DNA from: Solirubrobacter pauli
Lineage (GTDB): Bacteria > Actinomycetota > Thermoleophilia > Solirubrobacterales > Solirubrobacteraceae
DNA length: 64,000 bases
Assembly (NCBI RefSeq): GCF_003633755.1
Contig: NZ_RBIL01000001.1
Location: forward strand, 605,426-669,425
Reading direction: 5' to 3'
The translations under genes and the position numbers were made by a program. The notes under the pieces are model-generated. The model ran no database searches and was not told the origin of the DNA. It worked only from the letters and a program-made list of their open reading frames with translations. Positions 2,902 through 62,939 of the stretch are shown here, one piece after another. The first letter of the stretch is position 1. Each line of letters opens with the position of its first letter.

Positions 2902-4911
2902 TTACGGGTTCGTCGTCGAGAGCGTGAACGTCAGCGTCTTCGAGTACGAGCCCGTGCGCAGGGCGTCGTTCGCGTTGATCTGCTGACCGAACTGCACGTC
3001 GACCTGGTCGTTGGAGACCGGACCGCTGTAGGTCAGGAGGTTCAGGCCCGACCCGAGGTTGTTGTACGCCGTGCCGGTGTTGGCCGCGTTGCGAGCGCGG
3101 ACCTGCAGCGGCTGCGGCAGCGAGAACGTGCCGTTGACCAGATGGCCGGTGGCGGTGCTCGACGGATCGGCGACGCTCAGCGTCGCGTCACCGGCGGTGG
3201 AGGTGACGGTCGCCTTCGTGGTCGCCTCGTAGAGCTTGGCGACACCCGGCGTGAACGGGCCGAGCGGCTGCGCCGCGCCCAGCGAGAGCGACAGCGTGGC
3301 CGGAACGGTGCCACCCACGGGCGCCTCGACCGGAGCCGAGGCCCACGTCGTGACCTTGTCCTGGCTCTGGGCGTTCAGCCGCGCCTGCTTGGGAAGCCGC
3401 TCAGCCGCGGCGATCTCGCCGGCGGTCAGGTTCGCCGTGGGCGTGAGCTTCAGCGAGTCGAAGCCACGCGCGATCTCCGAGCCGTAGATGCGGCCGTTGT
3501 ACCAGTAGGTCGACCAGTAGCCGGCCGAGGACGGCAGCTGCGTCGTGTTGAGCGGGCCGCGGTCGAAGTAGCCGATCTCCTTCGGCTTCGACAGGTCGGT
3601 CCAGTCGATGATCGACGCGCCGCCCTGGTACCAGGCCTGGACCATGATGTTGCGGCCGGGCACGGGGATCAGGTTGCCGACGTGCGAGACGCAGTTCTCG
3701 TTGACCGTCTGCGCCACCGGCAGCTTGTAGTAGCTGCGGAAGACGAGCTTGTTGTTGACGATCTCGTAGATCGCGTCCGCGCCCCAGCTCATCTGGTCGG
3801 TCGCGCGGCAGCGAGCGCCGGAGCCGCCGCCCCACTCGTCGGTGAAGAGGACGGCCTTGCCGTCGTTGGAGAACGTGGCGCCGTGCCAGTAGGCGAACAG
3901 CGGGTCGGCGACCGCGTCGATGCGCTTGGGGTTGGCCGGGTCGGAGATGTCGATCAGGAGGCCGTTGCCCTCGCAGGCGCCGGCGGCCAGGTTGATCTCC
4001 TCGTAGACCGTGATGTCGTGGCAGGCGTCGCTGATCGGCTGCGGCGACCAGTTCGTGCCGGACGGGTGCTGCGGGGTCGGCAGCGTCTGCTGCAGGCCGT
4101 CGTGCTTGCCGGTCGCCTCGTCGGCGAAGAGGCGCGGGCCGCTCACCACGGCGGCGGACGCCGGGTCGGCGACGGGGACCTTGATGACGTCGATGCGCCA
4201 GCGCGAGGACTTGCCGCTCGCAGCCGCGTCATCGGGCTCCAGGCCCGGGTTCGAGCTCTTGTAGCAACCCGCGAGCTCCGTGCTGGCGCGCGCAGCCGCC
4301 GTGCCCGAGACGTAGATGTAGAGGTTCGCCGCGTCGTTCTTCGGACGCACCAGGGTGTGCGTGTGCGAGCCGCGGCAGGTCTGCACGCCGGCGACCTGCT
4401 TCGGGTTCTGGATGTCCGAGATGTCGAAGATGCGGATGCCGCGGAAGGCGTCGGCGGGAGCCGCCGTGCCGGTCCCGCGGGCGCAGTCCTTGCGGGCGCT
4501 CGTCGACTCGACCGAGACGAACAGCAGGTTGTTCCAGACCGAGACGTCGTTCTGGCTGCCGGGGCAGAAGATCGACGTGACGAGCTTCGGATCCGCCGGG
4601 TCGGCGATGTTGTAGATGTTGACGCCGTCGTAGTTGCCGTTGAACGCGTAGTCGCCCTGGAAGGCGAGGTCCGAGTTCGTACCGGCGACCGCGGCGGGCT
4701 TCGGGCGGTTGGCCAGATGCTGCAGGCCGAGCGCGGCCTTGCCGGCCGTCGCGTCGTCGACGCCCGGCGCGAGGCCGATGCGCGGGTCACCCGAGGTGAC
4801 CGGGAATTGCTGCGCGGAGGCCGAGACGGCCGTCGCGCCGAACAGGACGGCCGCGCCTAAGGCAGCGCCGAAAACTCGCCGCGCACGGCGATGCGTCGCG
4901 TGATGCGACAT
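2902..4911 (-). CDS. Secreted LVIVD-repeat beta-propeller protein
   Basis: A large exported protein. An N-terminal signal peptide (about residues 1–34: Arg-rich start, hydrophobic AALGAAVLFGATAV core, SASA cleavage region) is followed by repeated blocks such as VNIYNIADPADPKLV, IRIFDISDIQNPKQV and LLIDISDPANPKRI. These are LVIVD repeats, which fold as propeller blades. The last ~140 residues look like a separate beta domain. The start is ATG at 4911, with GGAGGGGG at 4923–4930 upstream; an in-frame start at 4986 would lie before the signal peptide and is less likely. It is transcribed away from the DUF305 lipoprotein. Function is unknown. Confidence 0.82.
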   Translation of the reverse strand: MSHHATHRRARRVFGAALGAAVLFGATAVSASAQQFPVTSGDPRIGLAPGVDDATAGKAALGLQHLANRPKPAAVAGTNSDLAFQGDYAFNGNYDGVNIYNIADPADPKLVTSIFCPGSQNDVSVWNNLLFVSVESTSARKDCARGTGTAAPADAFRGIRIFDISDIQNPKQVAGVQTCRGSHTHTLVRPKNDAANLYIYVSGTAAARASTELAGCYKSSNPGLEPDDAAASGKSSRWRIDVIKVPVADPASAAVVSGPRLFADEATGKHDGLQQTLPTPQHPSGTNWSPQPISDACHDITVYEEINLAAGACEGNGLLIDISDPANPKRIDAVADPLFAYWHGATFSNDGKAVLFTDEWGGGSGARCRATDQMSWGADAIYEIVNNKLVFRSYYKLPVAQTVNENCVSHVGNLIPVPGRNIMVQAWYQGGASIIDWTDLSKPKEIGYFDRGPLNTTQLPSSAGYWSTYWYNGRIYGSEIARGFDSLKLTPTANLTAGEIAAAERLPKQARLNAQSQDKVTTWASAPVEAPVGGTVPATLSLSLGAAQPLGPFTPGVAKLYEATTKATVTSTAGDATLSVADPSSTATGHLVNGTFSLPQPLQVRARNAANTGTAYNNLGSGLNLLTYSGPVSNDQVDVQFGQQINANDALRTGSYSKTLTFTLSTTNP

Positions 4912-51802: not shown

Positions 51803-51887
51803 GCGCCGATGGCGGAATTGGTAGACGCGCCAGGTTGAGGGCCTGGTCCGGGCTAACCGGGTGGAGGTTCGAGTCCTCTTCGGCGCA
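51803..51887 (+). tRNA. tRNA-Leu(GAG)
   Basis: A class II tRNA of 85 bases. The acceptor stem pairs GCGCCGA (51803–51809) with TCGGCGC (51880–51886), discriminator A. The D-arm is GGCGGAATTGGTAGACGCG, the anticodon stem CCAGG/CCTGG holds loop TTGAGGG with anticodon GAG at 51837–51839, the long variable arm is seen, and the T-arm is GGAGGTTCGAGTCCTC. CCA is not encoded. The 3' end is the likely insertion site of the downstream element. Confidence 0.97.
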
Positions 51888-51976: not shown

Positions 51977-51994
51977 AAAACAAAGGGCTGTTTT
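51977..51994 (+). promoter_or_regulatory. Inverted repeat over the integrase start
   Basis: AAAACA and TGTTTT flank AAGGGC. The ribosome-binding purines lie at 51982–51987, partly in the loop, and the TTG start at 51993 overlaps the right arm. It could limit integrase translation or be a binding site for an element regulator. Confidence 0.4.
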
Positions 51995-53228
51995 GCCGAA
52001 GCTCACCAAGGACCAGATCGCGGCCAAGATCGCCGCGCTGCAGGCCAAGCTCGAAGACGACGACGGCGGCGTCTACGAGGACCCAGACACCAAGCGCTGG
52101 TTCATCGTCATGCGCCCACCCGGCGCCGAGAAGACCACCACCCGCCGACGCGCCCCCGACGGCAGCCGACTCCGCACACGGGACGAAGCACTGATCGCCC
52201 GCGGCCAATGGGAAGCGCAGATGCAGTCGGGAACGGTCGCTGTCGGCCGCGAGCGCTTCGAGACCTTCTGGCCGCACTACCTGCGCCACGCCAAGGCGGA
52301 GATGACGCGCGGCTCGTGGGACGACCTCCGCGCCCACGGCGACAAACGACTGCTCCCGTTCTTCAGCGGGATGCAGCTCAGCCGCATCGGCGTCGACACC
52401 GTCCGCGAATGGCGGGCGACGATGCACGAGTGCGTCGAAGCCGGCGAGTGGGCGCCCAAGACGATCAACAACGCGCGGATCGCCCTACTCAGCTGCTTCC
52501 GGATGGCCGTCGCCGATCGGCTGATGGCGCACAACCCGGTGCTGGACGTCAAGCCGCTGCCGATCGACTTCATCGAGCGCCCGTATCTCCAGATCGGCCA
52601 GATCAACGGATACATCGACGCCTGCGCGCCGCGCTACCGCCCGCTCGCCGCCTTCCTCGTTGGGACGGGCGCCCGCGTCTCGGAAGCGATCGGGCTGGGA
52701 TTGGGCGATGTGGACCTGCAGGCCGGAGCGGTCAGGATCCACAAGCAGCGCGCGCGGGACGCGACGCTCACCACGCGTCCGACCAAGGGACGCAATTTCC
52801 GCACCGTGGCGATCGGGCCCGGCCTGGTCGCCGTGCTGCGCGACATGCTCGCGCTGCGGACCGAACGCGGTGTCGACGACGCCGGTTGGCTGTTCCTCTG
52901 TCCGCCGACCGCACGAGGACGCTACTCGCGGCGCGACGAGCCCCGGCCGCCGCACCGCAAGACCGTCCACGACTGGCACGAGCAGGCGCTCGAGGACGCC
53001 GGCCTCACCGACATGCCGCTGCACGCGCTCCGTCACACCGCCGCGGCCGCGTGGCTCGGTACGGGACGTTCACTTGAGTTCGTGCGCGCGCAGCTCGGCC
53101 ACAGCTCCGTGAAGGTCACCAGCGACTACTACGGCCACCTCGAAGAGCACTTCCGGGCGGCCGGCGTCGCGGACACCGAAGCCCGGATCCAGGCGGCGCG
53201 GGAAGCCCGACTCGTGGCGATGCCCTAG
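51993..53228 (+). CDS. Tyrosine-type site-specific integrase
   Basis: A 411-residue phage-like integrase that would recombine the element with the tRNA gene. The N-terminal part includes a helical SAM-like core-binding domain (about 85–185). The catalytic domain has Arg228 in GARVSEAI, His344 and Arg347 in HALRH, His370 in LGHSS and Tyr380 in SDYYGH. The full active set is present. The start is TTG at 51993. It lies 105 bases after the tRNA and reads away from it, the usual position for a tRNA integrase. The stop overlaps the convergent excisionase-like gene. Confidence 0.93.
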   Translation: MPKLTKDQIAAKIAALQAKLEDDDGGVYEDPDTKRWFIVMRPPGAEKTTTRRRAPDGSRLRTRDEALIARGQWEAQMQSGTVAVGRERFETFWPHYLRHAKAEMTRGSWDDLRAHGDKRLLPFFSGMQLSRIGVDTVREWRATMHECVEAGEWAPKTINNARIALLSCFRMAVADRLMAHNPVLDVKPLPIDFIERPYLQIGQINGYIDACAPRYRPLAAFLVGTGARVSEAIGLGLGDVDLQAGAVRIHKQRARDATLTTRPTKGRNFRTVAIGPGLVAVLRDMLALRTERGVDDAGWLFLCPPTARGRYSRRDEPRPPHRKTVHDWHEQALEDAGLTDMPLHALRHTAAAAWLGTGRSLEFVRAQLGHSSVKVTSDYYGHLEEHFRAAGVADTEARIQAAREARLVAMP

Positions 53229-54208: not shown

Positions 54209-55534
54209 ATGACGCAAGTCCCGCTCCACGCCATTGGAGCGTCCGAGGATCTCGGACCGCTGCTCAGAGTCAGGGTCGAAGCGCCCGACGGCGCGAGCCT
54301 CGTGAGCGTTCCAGCCGACGAACCCATCAACGTGTTCGTCGCGGATCTGGCCGAGGCCCTTGCCGTCACGCCAGCGGATGCGCACTGGTCCTTTGGCCCC
54401 AGCTCGGACTCCGTGTTCGACCGTCGCATGTCGCTCGGAGAGCTCGGGGTACGAGACGGAGACGTGCTCGTCATGCGGCGTCTGCAGCCCGCCGCCACCT
54501 CGCAGGAGTTCGCGTGCTCGCTCCACGCCCGCACGCAACTCACCCTGCCGGCTCGATTGACTCCCGCCGAACGGGCCGGCATCGCGCTCCGCGAGTCCAT
54601 GCGACACGGACCGTCACACGGAGCGCCTCAACCGAACGAGACGGCGGCCGACCCTGAAGTGCTGTCGCTGCCCACGCGGACTCCGCTCTGGCGGCGGATG
54701 CGGAGTGCCTGGGCCGCGAGCGACTATGAGCGCCGTCTCGATGAGCGGATCACCGCACCACGGCTTGCCCAATGCGCCACCATCGCGGTCTTGTCGCCCA
54801 AGGGCGGTCCCGGCAAGACCACGGTGACCGCGCTGCTCGGCTCGCTGCTCGCGTACCTACGGAGCGACCGCGTCATCGCGGTCGACGCGAATCCCGACTT
54901 CGGATCGCTCGGCCGGCGCCTCACTCCCCAGCACGACGTGTTCCTCGACGACCTGCTGCATGGGTGCCTGTGCGACTCCGCTCTGTCGGCAGCAGCCTTC
55001 GACGGCGCTCTTGGTCGCGGTCCGGACGGCCTGATGGTGGCGCCGGCGCCGACTGATCCGCAGCGCGCCAGCGCGCTCGACGAGGACGCCTACCGCGCAT
55101 TGTTCACTCGCCTCGCGACGTTCGCCGGTGCGCTCGTGCTGGACTGCGGCACCGGCCTGGACGCGCCTCCGGCCCGTGCGGCCCTCGCCCGCGCGGATCA
55201 AGTCGTCCTCCTCACGGACGCCGAACCTGACACGGCAAGCCTGGTTTGGGAAGCCGCTACCTGGCTGCGCGACGTGGCGCCACCGCTGGTGTTGGTCGTC
55301 AACAAGCACGAGCCGCGCTCCGAGCTCAACGTTGAGACGTTCGGTCAGGCGATCCCGTTCGCACGCGGGCTGATCACGATCCCACGCGAGGATGCCGCCG
55401 CCACGCTCCTCCGAAGTGGCCGTTTCAGCTGGTCGCAAGCGGCTCCAGGCTGGCGGATCCGTGTGCGCGAGCTGGCCGCGTTGTTGACCGCCGACTGGCC
55501 GGGTCTCGGTCTCGAGGCGAGCCGACGTCGCTGA
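54209..55534 (+). CDS. Ubiquitin-like (YukD/EccD) domain fused to MinD/ParA-type ATPase
   Basis: A 441-residue fusion. Residues about 18–92 look like the YukD/EccD ubiquitin-like fold of type VII secretion (LLRVRVEAPDGASLVSVPAD, then SLGELGVRDGDVLVMRRL). A linker (about 95–185) leads to a MinD/ParA-type ATPase with the deviant Walker A SPKGGPGKTT at 196–205, VDANPD at 225–230, and LVLDCGTGLD and LLTDAEPD farther on. Such ATPases position or assemble surface machinery, and EspI in ESX systems has a similar ATPase. No EccC, EccB or WXG100 gene is seen here. GGAAG precedes the ATG. It is divergent from the sigma gene. Confidence 0.8.
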   Translation: MTQVPLHAIGASEDLGPLLRVRVEAPDGASLVSVPADEPINVFVADLAEALAVTPADAHWSFGPSSDSVFDRRMSLGELGVRDGDVLVMRRLQPAATSQEFACSLHARTQLTLPARLTPAERAGIALRESMRHGPSHGAPQPNETAADPEVLSLPTRTPLWRRMRSAWAASDYERRLDERITAPRLAQCATIAVLSPKGGPGKTTVTALLGSLLAYLRSDRVIAVDANPDFGSLGRRLTPQHDVFLDDLLHGCLCDSALSAAAFDGALGRGPDGLMVAPAPTDPQRASALDEDAYRALFTRLATFAGALVLDCGTGLDAPPARAALARADQVVLLTDAEPDTASLVWEAATWLRDVAPPLVLVVNKHEPRSELNVETFGQAIPFARGLITIPREDAAATLLRSGRFSWSQAAPGWRIRVRELAALLTADWPGLGLEASRRR

Positions 55535-55664: not shown

Positions 55665-56345
55665 ATGAGTGCCGACCTCTACCTCGAGCTTCTGCTTGTG
55701 GGCATCCTCGCCACGGCGGTTGCCTTGGGCGCCGTCACGGCGGTGATCCTCGTGAGCCGCAGCGCCCGCGACCGCCGGGTGGCGACATCGGTGCCTGAGG
55801 TTTGGCCCGTCCACAAGCCGCGCGCCCAGCTCGGCTCTACGGCGCGCCTCGCGAAGCTGCTTGATCGAAGTCGGCGCCTGGCCGCAGCGGAGGCGCACGT
55901 CGGACGCGAGTTCGAGCTAATCCAGCGCTCCGGCTGGATGGTCGAACGCAACGTCGTGACCGGCGCTCATCGAGTTCCGTTCGTCGTGCTGGGGCCAGGC
56001 GGTCTCTTCGCGATCTGCGCGACCGACGGCGCGTGGACGATGCAGGACCTCGCGGCGCTTGCGGCGGCCGGCGGCGAGCTGCGCGCGACGCTGCCGGACT
56101 ATCGCGGACCCGTGACGGCGGTCGTCTGCATCGCGTTCGACGACGCCGAGCCGCGGTCCTGGCACTCGCCCAGTGTCGGCGGCGGCTGGGTGGTCGGCGT
56201 AGAGCGACTGCGTGAGTGGCTCCACGCATGCAGGTGTGAAGACGGGTTCTCGCGCGAGGACATCGCGAGCCTCCACTCCGCCGCGGGTCCGCATTGGCAG
56301 CGCCACTCGATCCTCCGTCTGCCGCCGGTTCAGAACGTGGGCTGA
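55665..56345 (+). CDS. Membrane protein with NERD-like domain
   Basis: A 226-residue protein. One N-terminal membrane helix (about 8–31) and a basic helical linker are followed by a compact domain with GREFELIQRSGWMVERNVVT and VPFVVLGPGGLFAIC, which resembles the nuclease-related NERD fold. The invariant acidic/Lys catalytic residues of NERD are not clear, so nuclease activity is doubtful. It lies in the element cargo after the ATPase fusion. The start is ATG at 55665 with AGGA a few bases upstream. The family call is tentative. Confidence 0.5.
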   Translation: MSADLYLELLLVGILATAVALGAVTAVILVSRSARDRRVATSVPEVWPVHKPRAQLGSTARLAKLLDRSRRLAAAEAHVGREFELIQRSGWMVERNVVTGAHRVPFVVLGPGGLFAICATDGAWTMQDLAALAAAGGELRATLPDYRGPVTAVVCIAFDDAEPRSWHSPSVGGGWVVGVERLREWLHACRCEDGFSREDIASLHSAAGPHWQRHSILRLPPVQNVG

Positions 56346-56551
56346 CTGGGGCGCGATGTCATCGCACGAACATCACGAGCACCGCCGAGATCGCAGCTGC
56401 CAACAAGGACGGCGGATCGCTCAGTGATCCTCCGCGCGACGGTCCGAACGGTGCAAAGATTCCGAGCCGGGAGAGCAATGGCGGCCTTGTCGTATCGAAG
56501 GCAGGACAACTCGGCGCGGAGGTCGCTCGCGACTGCCGCCTAGGTGTGTAG

Positions 56552-57880
56552 ATGGCCGCGATCACACCGCCGACTGAGCTGGAACGCCTCGCGCATGAGC
56601 GAGACGGGCTGGTCGCGTGGCTGGCACGAGAGTTCGCCCAGGCCCTCTCCATCGAAGACGCCGAGGACATCGTGTCTGAGGCACTGCCCGGGCTCGCCAA
56701 CGATCCTTCGTTGCCCGCCACCGGCCGTCGGCGGCGCGTCTATCTCCGGCGCGCGCTGCAGCGGGATGCGATCGACGAGCTCCGCCGGCGTCACGGCCGC
56801 GCGCTTCGTGATGGTCCGCGACAACTGCTCCCGCTCGAGCGCGCCGTAGCCCTCGCTGACCCCAGCGCCGCCCCAGAGCAGCATCTCGAGGAGCAGCAGG
56901 CCGCCGTCGAGCGACAAGCGGTCGTCGGGCGGACGATGGCTCGACTTCGGCCCGAGGACGCGGAGGTCCTTCGCCTCAAGTACCTCGAAGGGCGCGCCCC
57001 GGACGAGATCGCCGCCGAGCTCGGGATCACACGCACCCAGTACGAGCGTCGGCTCGCGCGTGCCGGAGCGAACGGCGTCGACGCGCTAAGCACCGCCGAG
57101 GGCAGCTCTGCGTGCAAGTCGGCTCGGCAGATGCTCGCGGTCGACGGCCACCGCTCTCGCGACGAGATCGAGCGGTTGGACGTCCATCTTCTGGACTGCC
57201 TGCACTGCCGGGCGTTCGCTTTGCGGGCGAGAGGCCTTCTGGAGGCCGCGACGCTTCCGCTCGTCGGCGTACTCGAGCGAGCTGCAGCACGCCTCGGATC
57301 GATCCTCGGTCGCGGCGGCGAGCCTGCCCTTCACGACGCCCGGGACGTCGCGCTCGCCGGCGGCTCTGCCGTTGGCGCCGGCACCGCGGTGGGTGTCGGT
57401 CTAGGCACGAAGATGGCGGTTAGCTGCGCGGGCGTCGCGATCGCAGCCGTCTGCGCCGGTCCCATCGCGCACGAGCTGGCTCCCAAGCCGAATCCCGCAC
57501 AAGCGGAACAGCAGCAGAGCGCGACCAAACGGACGAAGCCCCGGGCAACGCCGACGACGGCTCCCGCGACGCCGACTCCGACCGTCACCGTGAGCCAGCC
57601 GGTGTCGACTCCCACCGCTGCACCGACTGCGAGGCCGAAGAAGCGCGCGCAGCGGCCGCGCTCCACGGCTAAGGAACGACGTCAACGCGCGAAGGCTGCG
57701 GCTGCCAAGGAGTTCGGGCCCGAGTCGGCCACGCCGGATGTCTCGGCCGCGGCCAAGGCGTCCGCCGCGACCGCAACCACCACATCGAGCGCCTCACCGC
57801 CGCCGCCACCCCCGCCGAAGCCGGCGTCCACTTCCAAGGGTCCGACGAGCTCATCGTTCAGCGGAGAGTTCCGCCCATGA
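56552..57880 (+). CDS. Sigma factor fused to ZAS anti-sigma, membrane helix and extracellular tail
   Basis: A 442-residue single polypeptide. Sigma region 2 is at about 20–85 (DAEDIVSEALPGL, RALQRDAIDELRRR) and region 4 at about 125–172 (LRPEDAEVLRLKYLEGRAPD, EIAAELGITRTQYERRL). A zinc anti-sigma (ZAS) motif follows: Cys188, His212, Cys216 and Cys219. A membrane helix spans about 287–308, and the remaining ~135 residues are a Pro/Thr/Ala/Lys-rich outside tail. A membrane-tethered sigma factor would need cleavage or a signal to be released. The next gene overlaps its stop (ATGA). Confidence 0.82.
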   Translation: MAAITPPTELERLAHERDGLVAWLAREFAQALSIEDAEDIVSEALPGLANDPSLPATGRRRRVYLRRALQRDAIDELRRRHGRALRDGPRQLLPLERAVALADPSAAPEQHLEEQQAAVERQAVVGRTMARLRPEDAEVLRLKYLEGRAPDEIAAELGITRTQYERRLARAGANGVDALSTAEGSSACKSARQMLAVDGHRSRDEIERLDVHLLDCLHCRAFALRARGLLEAATLPLVGVLERAAARLGSILGRGGEPALHDARDVALAGGSAVGAGTAVGVGLGTKMAVSCAGVAIAAVCAGPIAHELAPKPNPAQAEQQQSATKRTKPRATPTTAPATPTPTVTVSQPVSTPTAAPTARPKKRAQRPRSTAKERRQRAKAAAAKEFGPESATPDVSAAAKASAATATTTSSASPPPPPPPKPASTSKGPTSSSFSGEFRP

Positions 57881-59553
57881 AACTGGCTCTGTGTGGAGTG
57901 CTCTGCGCGGCGGGTGTATGGGCCACGGTCAGTGCCGCGGAGGTTCACGCCGGCACCGCGACCATCCACCAATGCGCTGGACCGGCAGGGCAGATCGCCG
58001 CCACCGACATGGTGCGCGCTCCGGACGTGTCGCGGATGGAGGTCAGCATGGCGTGCGGGGTCCCGGGCGCCGACTGGCAGATCCGCCTCCGCCGCGGCGG
58101 TCCGGGGTTTGATCCCGCGAACCCCAGCGAGGTGCTGATCACCGGACCAGCAGGGACGGTGATCTCGGGTGGTCGAATCGAGAGGCAACTCTTCGGCTAC
58201 GTGTACAGCACCGCCGTCGGCCAGGCGACCTGGGGATTCGGGTACCGGTTGTCCGACGCCGAACGACGATTGATCGAGCGGTGCGGCACCGAATGGCCCT
58301 ACGAGGGTCAGCTCGAGACGTGTGGTCCAGCAGCCGGTGGGTGGTGGCAGTTCCCGACGACGGCTGTCGACCTGCCGACGGCGCCCACACCCGTCGTTCG
58401 CATCGGGTTCGGCTGCTACCGCAACGGGAGCAACTGCCAAGGGCCGCTCAGGGATGAGTTCCTCGGCATCAGGCGGATGACCCTGCGCGTTGCCGACGTC
58501 GCGGCTCCAGTGGTCACCGGGGCTGTCGGACCGCTCGCCGCGGACGAACCTGTGCGTACTCGGATGCTGTCGATCAACGCGTCAGATGTCGGGCTCGGGC
58601 TGTACCGGCTGATCGTGAGCGTGGACGGCCGGGTGACGGAGACCCAGTGGTTCGAGCCTGCTGCGACCGCATGCCGTGACGCCGACCCGAACACCGCCGA
58701 CCCCTACGAGTTCAACGCTGCGACCGCATGCCCCACCGTCTCATCCTCGCGGACGTTCCACCTGTCGTCTCTGCCGGCGAGCGGCATGCACCAGGTGCGC
58801 GTCGACGTCGAGGACGCTTCGGGCAACCGCACTGCGGCCGTCGATCGCGTTGCGACGTTCGCGTTGCCGTCGGACGGGTTGCGCTGTCCGACCGCCGGGT
58901 GTGTCCGGCCACCGCCGAGACCGAACGGCGTCAACGCTTCGCCCTCTGCGACGCTCGCCATCTCCGGCAAGCGAACGCTTCGGCTGAACTACGGGCGTAA
59001 GGCGACCGTGAGCGGACGGTTGGTCAACTCGGCGGGCCTTCCGATCGCCGCGGCCCAGCTCGAGGTCTCGCAGCGCGTGACCGGATCTTCGGCGTGGACC
59101 CCAGCCGGGCAGGTGCAGACCGACGCCGGCGGACGTTTCCGCTACGTCGGGACCAAGGGGGCCTCGCGCGTCCTCGCGGTCCAGTACCGCCCGACGCTGG
59201 ACGCGTCAGACGTCGGGACAACCGCCCAGGTGACCGTACGAGTACGAGCTGGCGTGACGATGACGCTTCGCCCGAAGACGGTCAACCCGGGCGGCACGGT
59301 TCGCGTGCGTGGTCGACTCCTCGGCGAGGGCGTACAAGCCGGGACGCTGGTCGAGCTGCAAGCGATGGACGGTCGCGAATGGCGCACGTTCAAGACGTTG
59401 CCGGTCAAGCGAGGGCGTTTCGCCTATCGCTACCGCTTCCGTCATACGTCGGGAGGTGCACGGTTCCTGTGGCGGATCCACGTGCGCGCGCAAGCCGGCC
59501 TCCCCTACTCTGCGGGCACCTCGCGAGCCGCCTGGGTGTCGGTCCGGCCGTGA
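57877..59553 (+). CDS. Secreted Cys-containing surface protein with Ig-like repeats
   Basis: A 558-residue exported protein. The signal peptide is about 1–25 (MKLALCGVLCAAGVWATVSA). The N-terminal ~180 residues hold scattered Cys; a middle part (DVAAPVVTGAVGPL… NASDVGLGLYRLIVSVDGRV) and EDASGNRT are Ig/fibronectin-like; the C-terminal third has two beta repeats beginning GRKATVSGRLVN and GGTVRVRGRLLG. No LPXTG or membrane anchor is seen, so it may be secreted or loosely attached. The start overlaps the sigma-fusion stop. Family unknown. Confidence 0.7.
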   Translation: MKLALCGVLCAAGVWATVSAAEVHAGTATIHQCAGPAGQIAATDMVRAPDVSRMEVSMACGVPGADWQIRLRRGGPGFDPANPSEVLITGPAGTVISGGRIERQLFGYVYSTAVGQATWGFGYRLSDAERRLIERCGTEWPYEGQLETCGPAAGGWWQFPTTAVDLPTAPTPVVRIGFGCYRNGSNCQGPLRDEFLGIRRMTLRVADVAAPVVTGAVGPLAADEPVRTRMLSINASDVGLGLYRLIVSVDGRVTETQWFEPAATACRDADPNTADPYEFNAATACPTVSSSRTFHLSSLPASGMHQVRVDVEDASGNRTAAVDRVATFALPSDGLRCPTAGCVRPPPRPNGVNASPSATLAISGKRTLRLNYGRKATVSGRLVNSAGLPIAAAQLEVSQRVTGSSAWTPAGQVQTDAGGRFRYVGTKGASRVLAVQYRPTLDASDVGTTAQVTVRVRAGVTMTLRPKTVNPGGTVRVRGRLLGEGVQAGTLVELQAMDGREWRTFKTLPVKRGRFAYRYRFRHTSGGARFLWRIHVRAQAGLPYSAGTSRAAWVSVRP

Positions 59554-60770
59554 AGCTCGCGCCACTCGCCGCCGTCCTCCTGGTGGGAGCGTCCGCTGCC
59601 AAAGCTGAGGCGAGCGAGCTGACGATGACTGCGCAGGCTGTCTTCGCGCGCGGCGAGTTCCTCACACAGGCGCCCGCTCCGCCCTCACAAGGCGTGCTGT
59701 GCTTGGTCGACTCAGGGGTCGACGTGAACCCCGACACGGAATCGATCGTCTTGAGCCGGGAATCGGTTTTGGGTGGCACGGCCGACGACGTCACTGCATA
59801 CAACCACGGCACGTACGTCGCGATGGTCGCCGGGGCAAGCGCGAACGGTTGGGGCATGGTCGGCGCGTGGCCTGGGCTCAGCGTACTCTCGGTGCGAGCG
59901 CTTCCGGAGGGAACCGACAACCTGAGCGGCGACGCGTACCGCGACGGCATCTTGAGCTGCCGCCAGGCGAAGCGCTCGCGCGGGCTGGACGTCAAGGTCA
60001 TCGAGCTGGCGCTCGGAGGGCCGATGGAAGGCCGTACACCAGCCGAGCTCGCGGACCTCAACGAAGCCATCGCCCGCGCCCGCGCCGACGAGATCAGCGT
60101 CGTCTCTGCGGCCGGGAACGACGGCGGCCCGGTCAACGTCCCGGCGGCGCTTCCTGGCGTGCTCGCGGTGGCTGCTGCTGCGCGCGACGGAGGGCTGTGT
60201 GCGTTCTCGTCCCGTGGAGCAGAGGTAGACGTCACTGCCCTGGGATGCGGGATGGACGTCGCCCAGGTTCCGAACGGGGATGCGGGCATCGGGGAGAGCA
60301 CCAGCCTCGCCTCAGCGTATGTCGCGGGTGTGCTGACCGCTCTGCGCTCGTTCCGTCCCGACCTGACCGCCGCGCAGGCGGAAGCTGCGCTGGCCAGTTC
60401 GCCCGGTGGGCGGTTCGATGCCGCCGCTGCGTTCCGCGCTGCTGGCCTCGGATCCCTCGTCGACGCGTACGTTCCTCCGCAGCCTCCGCCGGCTCCCCAA
60501 CCGGCTGCCTGCAACGCAGCCACCGCGATCTGTGTGTCTCCGCGCGTGTCCCGCGCCACGAAGCACGGGCGCCGGGTCACGATTCGGCTCGCGACCATGC
60601 CCAAGGGCGTGAAGACACTCGTGCGTGTTGACGGGCGGCGGCGCTATGAGGGACGATCGAAACGCATCGTGCTCAAGGTTCGACGATTCAAGACCATCAG
60701 TCTCCGGTTCGTCGCGAAGGGGCGAACGCCGTCCGCCGCGGTGGTCCTTCGACCACGGCAGTTCCGCTAG
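59550..60770 (+). CDS. Secreted subtilisin-like serine protease (S8)
   Basis: A 406-residue exported protease. Signal peptide about 1–21; catalytic Asp54 in CLVDSGVD, His86 in YNHGTYVAMVAG, oxyanion Asn190 in SAAGND, and Ser252 in STSLASAYVAG. The triad is complete, and the Ser motif differs from the common GTSMAAPHVAG. A Pro-rich linker (about 315–330) precedes a basic C-terminal beta domain of ~75 residues. No propeptide of normal length is obvious. The GTG start overlaps the previous stop. It may process the tail of the sigma fusion or the neighbouring surface proteins; this is inferred. Confidence 0.87.
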   Translation: MKLAPLAAVLLVGASAAKAEASELTMTAQAVFARGEFLTQAPAPPSQGVLCLVDSGVDVNPDTESIVLSRESVLGGTADDVTAYNHGTYVAMVAGASANGWGMVGAWPGLSVLSVRALPEGTDNLSGDAYRDGILSCRQAKRSRGLDVKVIELALGGPMEGRTPAELADLNEAIARARADEISVVSAAGNDGGPVNVPAALPGVLAVAAAARDGGLCAFSSRGAEVDVTALGCGMDVAQVPNGDAGIGESTSLASAYVAGVLTALRSFRPDLTAAQAEAALASSPGGRFDAAAAFRAAGLGSLVDAYVPPQPPPAPQPAACNAATAICVSPRVSRATKHGRRVTIRLATMPKGVKTLVRVDGRRRYEGRSKRIVLKVRRFKTISLRFVAKGRTPSAAVVLRPRQFR

Positions 60771-62284
60771 TGCCAAGGTGCGCCCGGATCGGGGTGGCGG
60801 TGGTGGGAGCGGCCGCGCTGTCCTTCCCGGCGCATGCCCGAGCCGGCACGTACGAGGTCGTCGCGTGCGCTGCTGCGCAGGGCGCCAACCGAGCCTGGGT
60901 TCCGTTCAACACCGACGCCTCCGGCCTGGTGACGGAGGACGGCTGTGCGGCCGTGATGGGCGGCGCCGCGGACGGGCTGTCGTCGCGTGATCGGGTCCCC
61001 GCCCCGCCGAACGCCGTCGCCGGCACTGAGGCGGGATGGAGGTTCCCGGCACCTCCGGGAACGGCGATCTCGCGGATCACAGCGCAGTACTACTTGGGGC
61101 AGTTCAGCTCCGGCGAGTGGCTCCCGTTCCTGCGGACCGCTGACGGCACCGTCCTGGATAGCTGTGTCCCCGCCAGTGGACAGACGCGATGCGAGCGTGG
61201 AGCGAGTGCGTTCGACCCGCTCGGGCCTTCCTCGTCGTTCGCCGTCAACACGTCGGCCGTCGAGGCCGGTGTCCGTTGTGCAGCTCCCTCGGGCACCTGC
61301 GGCAACGGCGTCGGCCTCAACGCGGCGTGGATGGCGATGTACTCGGCGCGGGTGCAGATCAATGACCTCCTCCTTCCTTCACTCGTGGCACCCACGGGCT
61401 CGTTGTGGGCAGACGGCTTCCAGTCAGGCGCGAGATCGGCAACTGTGGCTGCCACGGACAACACCGGCATTCGCTCGACGTGGATCGCCATCGACGACAC
61501 GCGCCGCAGCTCTGCCACCCGCAACTGCGACTACACGCGCACGATTCCGTGTACCAACGAGACCGGAGCGACCCTCAGTCTCGATACGCGGACGATTCCG
61601 GACGGCGCCCACCTCGCCACCGTAGGAGCCGACGACGCAGGCGGGAACACGTCAAGCGAGTCGCGCATGATCGTCGTCGACAACACGGCGCCGACAGCTC
61701 CGGTCAATTTGACGCTCGACGGCAACGCCCGCCGCAGCATCAACAGCTTCAATCTCGCTTGGCGGGTCCCCGAAGGACAAGTCGCGCCGATTTCGGCGGC
61801 GCGCTGGTCGCTCTGCCCGCGAGGGAAGTCAACCTCGGCTGAGTGCATCACCGGCCCGGGGACCACGGCCCAGACGCTCGACGGCGTCGCGGCTCCCGCG
61901 ATCGGTGACTGGGATCTGCGTGTCTGGCTCGTGGACGCGGCTGGCAACGCGAATCCGTCAGCTGCGGCCGGCCCCTTGCGGCTCACGCTCCTCGGTCACG
62001 ATCCGCGCGTGCGGATTCGAAGCGTGCGGCGCGCCGGACGCCTCGTGCGAGTCTCAGGGATCACGCGGGCAAGGTCCGGGCGCATTAACGTGCGCGTCGA
62101 GCGTCGGGTCGGCGGACGCACACTCCGTGTGCAAGGCACGGTCCGCATTCGCGACGGCCGCTGGACTCGCCGGCTCCGTCTGACCACGCGGATGGCTCAG
62201 TTCATGCGGCTCAACGCAATCGCTCGATTCGATGCGCAGCAGGGCTACCGTGCAGCGGTGGCTCGCCGCGCCGTCCCGCGGTAG
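60770..62284 (+). CDS. Second secreted surface protein with Ig-like domains
   Basis: A 504-residue exported protein. The signal peptide is about 1–25 (GVAVVGAAALSFPAHARA). The N-terminal part has several Cys (CAAAQ, EDGCAAV, DSCVPASGQTRC); the middle is Ig-like, with the tell-tale VDNTAPTAPVNLTLDG, and the C-terminus is an Arg-rich beta domain (VRIRSVRRAGRLVRVSG). It is similar in layout to the protein at 57877–59553. The start is a GTG that shares its first base with the protease stop (TAGTG). Last gene of the chain; a terminator follows. Confidence 0.7.
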   Translation: MPRCARIGVAVVGAAALSFPAHARAGTYEVVACAAAQGANRAWVPFNTDASGLVTEDGCAAVMGGAADGLSSRDRVPAPPNAVAGTEAGWRFPAPPGTAISRITAQYYLGQFSSGEWLPFLRTADGTVLDSCVPASGQTRCERGASAFDPLGPSSSFAVNTSAVEAGVRCAAPSGTCGNGVGLNAAWMAMYSARVQINDLLLPSLVAPTGSLWADGFQSGARSATVAATDNTGIRSTWIAIDDTRRSSATRNCDYTRTIPCTNETGATLSLDTRTIPDGAHLATVGADDAGGNTSSESRMIVVDNTAPTAPVNLTLDGNARRSINSFNLAWRVPEGQVAPISAARWSLCPRGKSTSAECITGPGTTAQTLDGVAAPAIGDWDLRVWLVDAAGNANPSAAAGPLRLTLLGHDPRVRIRSVRRAGRLVRVSGITRARSGRINVRVERRVGGRTLRVQGTVRIRDGRWTRRLRLTTRMAQFMRLNAIARFDAQQGYRAAVARRAVPR

Positions 62285-62315
62285 CGCACGATCGGCGCGG
62301 GGGCGATTCGCGATC

Positions 62316-62342
62316 GCCGCCTTAGATGTAGGGCGGCGTTTT
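62316..62342 (+). terminator. Intrinsic terminator after the surface-protein operon
   Basis: GCCGCC (62316–62321) pairs with GGCGGC (62332–62337) around a 10-base loop and is followed by GTTTT. It lies 31 bases past the last stop and supports the four-gene chain as one transcription unit. Confidence 0.65.
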
Positions 62343-62372
62343 CCTCACTCTCGACCACGCCGCGATATCGCC

Positions 62373-62939
62373 ATGCTTGACCTCGCCCCAGCTCCAACGC
62401 GGAGCCGCGCGGGTGCGCGCCCGCGAACCGCCGAAACTCATCTCGAGACCTCTAGGCCCCGAAGCGCCGACGCGACCTGCAGCTGGTGCGACCAGCATCC
62501 CGACCAGCACTGTCCTTCGTGCGCGGCACGGCGCAGACACGCCGTCCGCCTCGTGCGTGCCGGTGCGTCGGTCGTTGAGGCGGCTGAGCGGCTTCACCTG
62601 CCGATCGCGCGCGTCGAACGCCTTCTTGAGGAGGAAGAGGACCGCCGGGCGCTCGCCGACTTCCCGGTGCCGAGTGTCGACAACGCGATGCTGAGGGAGC
62701 TCCTCGCGAAGCAGCAGCGGGCCGAGACCACCCTCACCATCCCGGAGCTCGCAAGGCGCCTCAGTACCTCGCAGGCGCAGGTCGAGCGCTGGCTGGGGCT
62801 TCGCGCGACCGCGCCGAAGACGACTCGCGACGGTCGAACCTACCCGGCGCGCTTCCTCCAGCACGTCAGTGCGGATACGGCGGGTCGAATCGCTCGCGCG
62901 ATCGGGCTACTGCCCTGCGACGTCGACCGCGCAGCGTGA
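62373..62939 (+). CDS. Zinc-knuckle protein with two helix-turn-helix segments
   Basis: A 188-residue putative DNA-binding protein. An Arg/Ala-rich start precedes CSWCDQHPDQHCPSCAARRR, two CxxC knuckles of a probable zinc ribbon. Two helix-turn-helix-like segments follow: RAGASVVEAAERLHLPIARV and TIPELARRLSTSQAQVERWL. I do not recognise a named family. It could be a regulator of the element. The ATG at 62373 is chosen because the upstream part of the frame (from 62232) overlaps the surface-protein gene and its terminator. Confidence 0.6.
   Translation: MLDLAPAPTRSRAGARPRTAETHLETSRPRSADATCSWCDQHPDQHCPSCAARRRHAVRLVRAGASVVEAAERLHLPIARVERLLEEEEDRRALADFPVPSVDNAMLRELLAKQQRAETTLTIPELARRLSTSQAQVERWLGLRATAPKTTRDGRTYPARFLQHVSADTAGRIARAIGLLPCDVDRAA

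What the first reader, a model, noticed from the sequence alone, without database searches (positions are those of the whole stretch)
56552..62284. Four-gene chain: tethered sigma, surface protein, subtilase, surface protein
All three junctions overlap (ATGA, GTGA, TAGTG) and a terminator follows the last gene, so the four are one unit. A membrane-held sigma factor together with a secreted protease and two related Ig-like secreted proteins suggests a closed loop: an outside event, proteolysis, release of sigma, and expression of surface proteins. I know of no described system with this set.
Basis: partly seen in the sequence, partly recalled or inferred. Interest (0 to 1): 0.8.

Follow-up and report, generated by a model that had tools for sequence, protein, structure and literature searches.

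The report
Mobile-element sigma factor with surface tag
Soil bacteria of the Solirubrobacter group carry gene switches anchored in the cell membrane whose outer end bears a short conserved protein tag; many are made together with the fibre-like surface proteins encoded next to them, and this one sits on a large mobile DNA element beside its DNA-transfer machine, so it may let the element sense the cell surface before acting.

Summary
The four genes, junctions and terminator are real. The window is from a Solirubrobacter-like genome (Thermoleophilia). The operon lies in a ~161 kb integrative conjugative element (ICE): tyrosine integrase beside tRNA-Leu, 57-bp att repeats, T4SS genes, empty site in four relatives. 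srfA-subtilase-srfB is conserved in over 15 loci; the full four-gene order in seven, including a second copy in this genome, also beside a T4SS.

The unreported feature is an outer C-terminal tag, [G/S]-x-E-F-x-P-end, often with a second EFGP 25-58 residues earlier. It occurs in 29 of 47 tethered sigmas (shuffles: mean 0.65, max 4); all 24 sigmas followed by an Ig-like gene have it or a close variant. Translation-signal constraint does not explain it.

Best reading: a split relative of ECF48/52/53 sigmas, whose sensor is a separate surface protein probably docked by the tag. Docking, signal, protease role and control of transfer are inferred. New variant of a known kind.

The parts
51803..51887 (+). 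tRNA-Leu(GAG); its 3' 57 nt are the left end (attL) of the mobile element
   Evidence: ARAGORN; 57-bp perfect direct repeat about 161 kb downstream at C1:818271-818327
51993..53228 (+). tyrosine integrase of the element
   Evidence: Pfam Phage_integrase E 3.1e-21
54209..55534 (+). YukD-like ubiquitin fold fused to a MinD/ParA-like ATPase
   Evidence: Pfam YukD 1.1e-9, CbiA 1e-7
55665..56345 (+). membrane protein without a Pfam match, conserved upstream of the sigma in three elements
   Evidence: 51-60% identical genes upstream of the sigma in L050, L103, L104
56552..57880 (+). membrane-tethered ECF sigma factor: regions 2 and 4, HLLDCLHC zinc motif, membrane helix near residue 288, disordered outer tail
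57710..57739 (+). internal tail motif KEFGPESATP, conserved island in an otherwise diverging tail (approximate coordinates)
   Evidence: alignment with two relatives; second EF motif in 27 of 36 tailed sigmas
57845..57880 (+). C-terminal tag SSSFSGEFRP-end, overlapping the start of srfA (approximate left coordinate)
57877..59553 (+). SrfA, secreted protein with Ig-like beta-sandwich domains
   Evidence: signal-like N-terminus; AlphaFold C-terminal part pLDDT mostly above 90; Foldseek Ig/FN3 and SiiE adhesin
59550..60770 (+). secreted subtilase (S8), catalytic residues intact
   Evidence: Pfam S8 2.4e-24; T7SS mycosin model 91.9 bits, under its cut-off
60770..62284 (+). SrfB, secreted disulfide-rich Ig/FN3-like protein
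   Evidence: AlphaFold pLDDT 80.6; VIA Z about 11, residues 199-504; conserved Cys
62315..62338 (+). intrinsic terminator after the four genes
62232..62939 (+). HTH gene following the unit, conserved in the G005 element
   Evidence: Pfam HTH_23 5.8e-6; 53-57% in L050

Best explanation
The unit is a surface-coupled transcription switch carried by an ICE. The ECF sigma is held at the inner face of the membrane by a fused zinc-finger anti-sigma-like domain and one helix (architecture shown; inactivity in this state inferred). Its disordered tail runs outward and ends in a conserved EFxP tag, usually with a second EFxP motif about 25-58 residues earlier (shown). The tag most likely docks to an extracellular partner, best candidates being the co-translated Ig-like Srf proteins (inferred from gene coupling). 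When the Srf complex meets a surface event, or is changed by the co-secreted subtilase, the tail is altered or cut, intramembrane proteolysis follows and the sigma is freed to express the element's surface and perhaps transfer genes (inferred). It works like an ECF52 sigma whose fused carbohydrate-binding sensor has been replaced by a tag plus separate sensor proteins.
For: Tag: EF in the last 12 residues in 29 of 47 non-redundant tethered sigmas; shuffled tails mean 0.65, max 4 in 1000 shuffles. All 24 sigmas with an Srf gene directly downstream carry EF or a close variant; the 11 tagless tethered sigmas have none (Fisher p 8e-5, not corrected for phylogeny). Among 1124 called genes, EF ends after a clearly disordered stretch occur almost only on tethered sigmas, one other membrane protein and one zinc-finger-only protein. 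Tag sites FxxEFxP-stop in this genome: 3, control 0, all at the two operon copies. Sigma-Srf coupling recurs in four families. ICE: integrase, 57-bp att repeats, T4SS genes, empty site. The second own-genome copy and the S. soli copy also lie beside T4SS genes.
Against: Several tagged sigmas have no Srf gene next to them (10 of 29; S. deserti orphan), so the tag may bind a general host factor. Most pairs lack an adjacent protease. T4SS linkage fails for L055 and L105 and was not seen within about 8 kb in families f2-f4. No target promoter was identified. Tag-Srf binding was not modelled.
Confidence: 0.5

Rival explanations
1. The EFxP tail is a recognition or cleavage site for a host protease (a tail-specific carboxyl-terminal protease, or the operon subtilase). 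The Srf proteins are only regulated outputs, and the tail binds no Srf protein.
For: Tagged sigmas without Srf neighbours keep the tag. IutY, the one tested fused sigma, is processed by the carboxyl-terminal protease Prc and then RseP (PMC8999054). Repeated EF motifs would suit repeated cut sites.
Against: Does not explain why every Srf-linked sigma carries the tag or why sigma and Srf starts overlap; several tails place EF 6-9 residues before the end, so an exact C-terminus is not needed.
Confidence: 0.27
2. Srf proteins and subtilase are mating-contact adhesins and their processing enzyme for the T4SS; the sigma is an assembly or feedback monitor for that apparatus. (Overlaps in part with the best explanation.)
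For: Eight of ten sigma-Srf loci with long flanks have a T4SS ATPase, coupling protein or relaxase nearby, against one of eight srf-subtilase loci without a tagged regulator (hand-assembled table). Tandem Ig/FN3 folds resemble adhesins.
Against: Chromosomal versions with no T4SS exist (L055, L105, L058 and families f2-f4 within 8 kb). The 8/10 set was chosen by similarity to this sigma.
Confidence: 0.3
3. The tail motif is only a by-product of the ribosome-binding site and overlapping start codon of the next gene.
For: In the window GGAGAG lies about 8 nt before the srfA start.
Against: EF persists with GAG or GAA codons, often without any GGAG, and in genes with no overlapping start codon.
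Confidence: 0.03
4. An ordinary tethered sigma plus unrelated surface cargo on a mobile element, with no functional link between tail and neighbours.
For: ICE cargo is often a chance set; sigma without the other genes exists (L103, L104).
Against: Same pairing in four families and several T4SS types.
Confidence: 0.1

Closest known systems
ECF52 sigma factors (SCO4117 of Streptomyces coelicolor)
   Same: ECF domain, zinc finger, membrane helix, proline-rich outer extension; release by an unknown protease proposed (PMC5826349, PMC8999054)
   Different: No fused carbohydrate-binding domain here; instead an EFxP tag and separate co-translated Ig-like proteins, on an ICE
ECF48 and ECF53 sigma factors
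   Same: C-terminal zinc-finger anti-sigma domain plus one or two membrane helices, Actinobacteria (PMC8999054)
   Different: No EFxP tag or coupled Ig-like proteins are mentioned in the papers read; group membership not tested
IutY (ECF243) of Pseudomonas putida
   Same: Sigma fused to its membrane anti-sigma domain and activated by proteolysis (PMC8999054)
ECF54
   Same: Subtilase genes noted in the neighbourhood (PMC8999054)
   Different: There the proteases are proposed to keep the sigma inactive by degrading it
Mycosins (type VII secretion subtilases)
   Same: Best NCBIfam match of the subtilase
   Different: 91.9 bits against a cut-off of 278.75; nearest T7SS-like gene is a YukD-MinD fusion

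Membership tests
ECF sigma factor with fused anti-sigma (ECF48/52/53 kind) | ECF sigma regions 2 and 4 | tested here: met
   TIGR02937 52.2 bits, cut-off 42.9; Sigma70_r4_2 in 11 of 11 relatives
ECF sigma factor with fused anti-sigma (ECF48/52/53 kind) | C-terminal zinc-finger anti-sigma domain | tested here: met
   HLLDCLHC motif; His212, Cys216, Cys219 nearly invariant or invariant; zf-HC2 in 4 of 11 relatives, though not in the window protein itself
ECF sigma factor with fused anti-sigma (ECF48/52/53 kind) | Membrane helix followed by a proline-rich outer extension | tested here: met
   Hydropathy peak 1.99 at residue 288, 136-residue tail
ECF52 | Fused C-terminal carbohydrate-binding domain | tested here: not met
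   No domain matched after the helix; disordered tail ending SFSGEFRP
ECF48 or ECF53 group | Position in the ECF sequence classification | not tested
   The ECF classification models were not available
Integrative conjugative element | Integrase, flanking att direct repeats, empty site in relatives | tested here: met
   G003, G004, G001 and G006 align across the joined site
Integrative conjugative element | Conjugation genes (T4SS ATPase, coupling protein) | tested here: met
   TraG/VirB4 P-loop 2.2e-15, TrwB 1.6e-9, weak TrbL, SLT
Integrative conjugative element | Excision and transfer | not testable with these tools
   Needs cells
T7SS mycosin | Equivalog score TIGR03921 | tested here: not met
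   91.9 bits, cut-off 278.75
S8 subtilase | Asp, His, Ser and oxyanion Asn | tested here: met
   Asp54, His86, Asn190, Ser252; conserved in 16 of 18 correctly framed proteins, two have Thr at the Ser position

The most novel reading that the evidence does not exclude
An order-wide signalling class in which membrane-tethered sigma factors are plugged by a short C-terminal EFxP peptide into separately encoded Ig-like surface fibres, and conjugative elements have recruited it, with a dedicated protease, as a contact or assembly sensor that controls transfer.
Probability: 0.25. Interest if true: 0.85.

Novelty: new variant of a known kind. Interest (0 to 1): 0.62.

Why it matters
Fused-anti-sigma ECF factors are known, but what their outer ends sense is almost entirely open. 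A short conserved outer tag with a genetically coupled surface partner gives a directly testable sensor-to-sigma link, and placing it on conjugative elements beside the transfer machine suggests how a Gram-positive ICE could sense its surface. The searched open literature gave nothing on such a system in Solirubrobacter.

Tried and rejected
Ribosome-binding-site origin of the tail motif: rejected. Tag tied to the srfA-subtilase-srfB trio only: rejected, it marks a wider class of tethered sigmas. First tail pattern allowed TGG as a stop by mistake; those hits were discarded by eye. Membership in mycosins: below cut-off. Relatives on plasmids: only distant S8 proteases. Shared ECF promoter upstream of the operon: none found, although about 50 bp before the sigma start is conserved in three relatives. 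The first family-wide sigma search failed on the server; a 61-genome search replaced it. The first genome-contig scan with the sigma found nothing; a second found S. deserti and S. soli. SrfA N-terminal half was not folded confidently; SrfB residues 1-198 are barely covered by structure matches.

Full report
WHAT IS THERE. The sigma has ECF regions 2 and 4, a HLLDCLHC zinc motif, one hydrophobic helix and a 136-residue disordered tail. SrfA, subtilase and SrfB begin with signal-like sequences. The subtilase keeps Asp54, His86, Asn190 and Ser252; it resembles T7SS mycosins but is far below that family's cut-off. AlphaFold models of SrfB (pLDDT 80.6) and of the C-terminal part of SrfA are tandem Ig/FN3-like sandwiches, with adhesins among the structure matches. 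A shared fold does not show function.

WHERE IT IS. The genome is 7.1 Mb; named relatives of the sigma are Solirubrobacter deserti and S. soli (Thermoleophilia). The unit lies inside an ICE: tRNA-Leu(GAG) followed by a tyrosine integrase, a 57-bp perfect copy of the tRNA 3' end about 161 kb downstream, and an uninterrupted site in four congeners, whose DNA aligns across the joined junction for about 80 nt. Downstream are TrbL-like, VirB4/TraG, TrwB coupling with Replic_Relax, ParA and SLT genes. A second copy in the same genome (C1:330061-336803) has the same order and is also followed by TrbL-like, VirB4 (42% identical) and SLT genes, and the S. soli copy likewise has TrbL-like, VirB4 and coupling-protein genes. 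In S. deserti the sigma survives (79%) in a related element without trio or T4SS genes next to it.

CONSERVATION. srfA-subtilase-srfB order is found in many loci of the family. With the tethered sigma directly upstream: window, L049, L050, L055, L105, L108 and L106/L164; L099 reaches its contig end after srfA. The more common unit is only two genes, tethered sigma then one Srf protein, usually with overlapping stop and start; it occurs in families f1 to f4 of the order. In genera g2 and g25 a non-sigma membrane protein with a tail ending in C..GELGC or a similar motif takes the sigma's place.

THE TAG. The tails diverge except for EF motifs. In the window protein and two relatives the conserved islands are KEFGPESATP and SSSFSGEFRP at the very end. 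Across 47 non-redundant tethered sigmas, 29 have EF in the last 12 residues, against a shuffled mean of 0.65 and maximum of 4. A second EF motif, mostly 25-58 residues from the end, occurs in 27 of 36. The five other zinc-finger membrane sigmas of this genome that were checked lack both tag and Srf neighbour. GEFGP-stop DNA is enriched in this order against the rest of the class. The motif is not a ribosome-binding-site artefact, and among 1124 called genes it is nearly confined to this protein class. In three sigma-less Solirubrobacter loci the Srf protein itself ends in an EF-containing tail.

HOW IT PROBABLY WORKS. Sigma held inactive at the membrane by its own zinc-finger domain (inferred from ECF48/52/53 and IutY; PMC8999054, PMC5826349); outer tag docked to a surface partner, most simply the co-translated Srf protein (inferred); a surface event or proteolysis frees the sigma (inferred). 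The subtilase is an accessory of some versions. Control of conjugation is suggested by T4SS proximity in eight of ten long-flank loci, against one of eight controls (table assembled by hand; selection bias; not seen in families f2-f4).

VERDICT. Observation confirmed; interpretation partly supported; new variant of a known kind, with a previously unnoticed (as far as the searched literature shows) outer tag as the most useful lead.

Noticed in passing
L049:11632-12864 (G000:C1:337631-338863): Non-sigma membrane protein with a lysine/alanine-rich inner part and an outer tail ending SGFSSEFRP, between srfB and the TrbL-like gene of the second element: the same tag on a protein without a sigma domain.
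   Followed up: partly
window 56498-56551: About 50 bp directly before the sigma start is strongly conserved in the S. deserti and S. soli elements, with a GTCGYTCGCGAC palindrome; possible promoter, operator or small-ORF end.
   Followed up: partly
L119 (G062), 3442-4659 minus strand: Sigma N-terminal part fused in frame to the C-terminal part of an SrfB-like protein, as if the intervening genes had been deleted; may be a remnant.
   Followed up: no
L100 (G023:C108): Tail fragment TSTFSGEFAP-end at a contig start followed by a VirB4-like ATPase fragment and a WXG100-like protein.
   Followed up: no
L054, L057, L120, L123: Tagged membrane proteins without a sigma domain, tails ending in disulfide-like loops (CVPGELGC, CTAPGQLGC, CATAVPGQLGC, CIGLNELGC), upstream of the same Srf-subtilase-Srf set.
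   Followed up: partly
window 54209-55534: YukD-like ubiquitin fold fused to a MinD/ParA-like ATPase near the integrase of the ICE.
   Followed up: no
G000:C1:1357815-1358927 (L198): Chromosomal tethered sigma ending TKEFSFEGS, near a cysteine-synthase-like gene and conserved across the genus, without an Srf neighbour.
   Followed up: no
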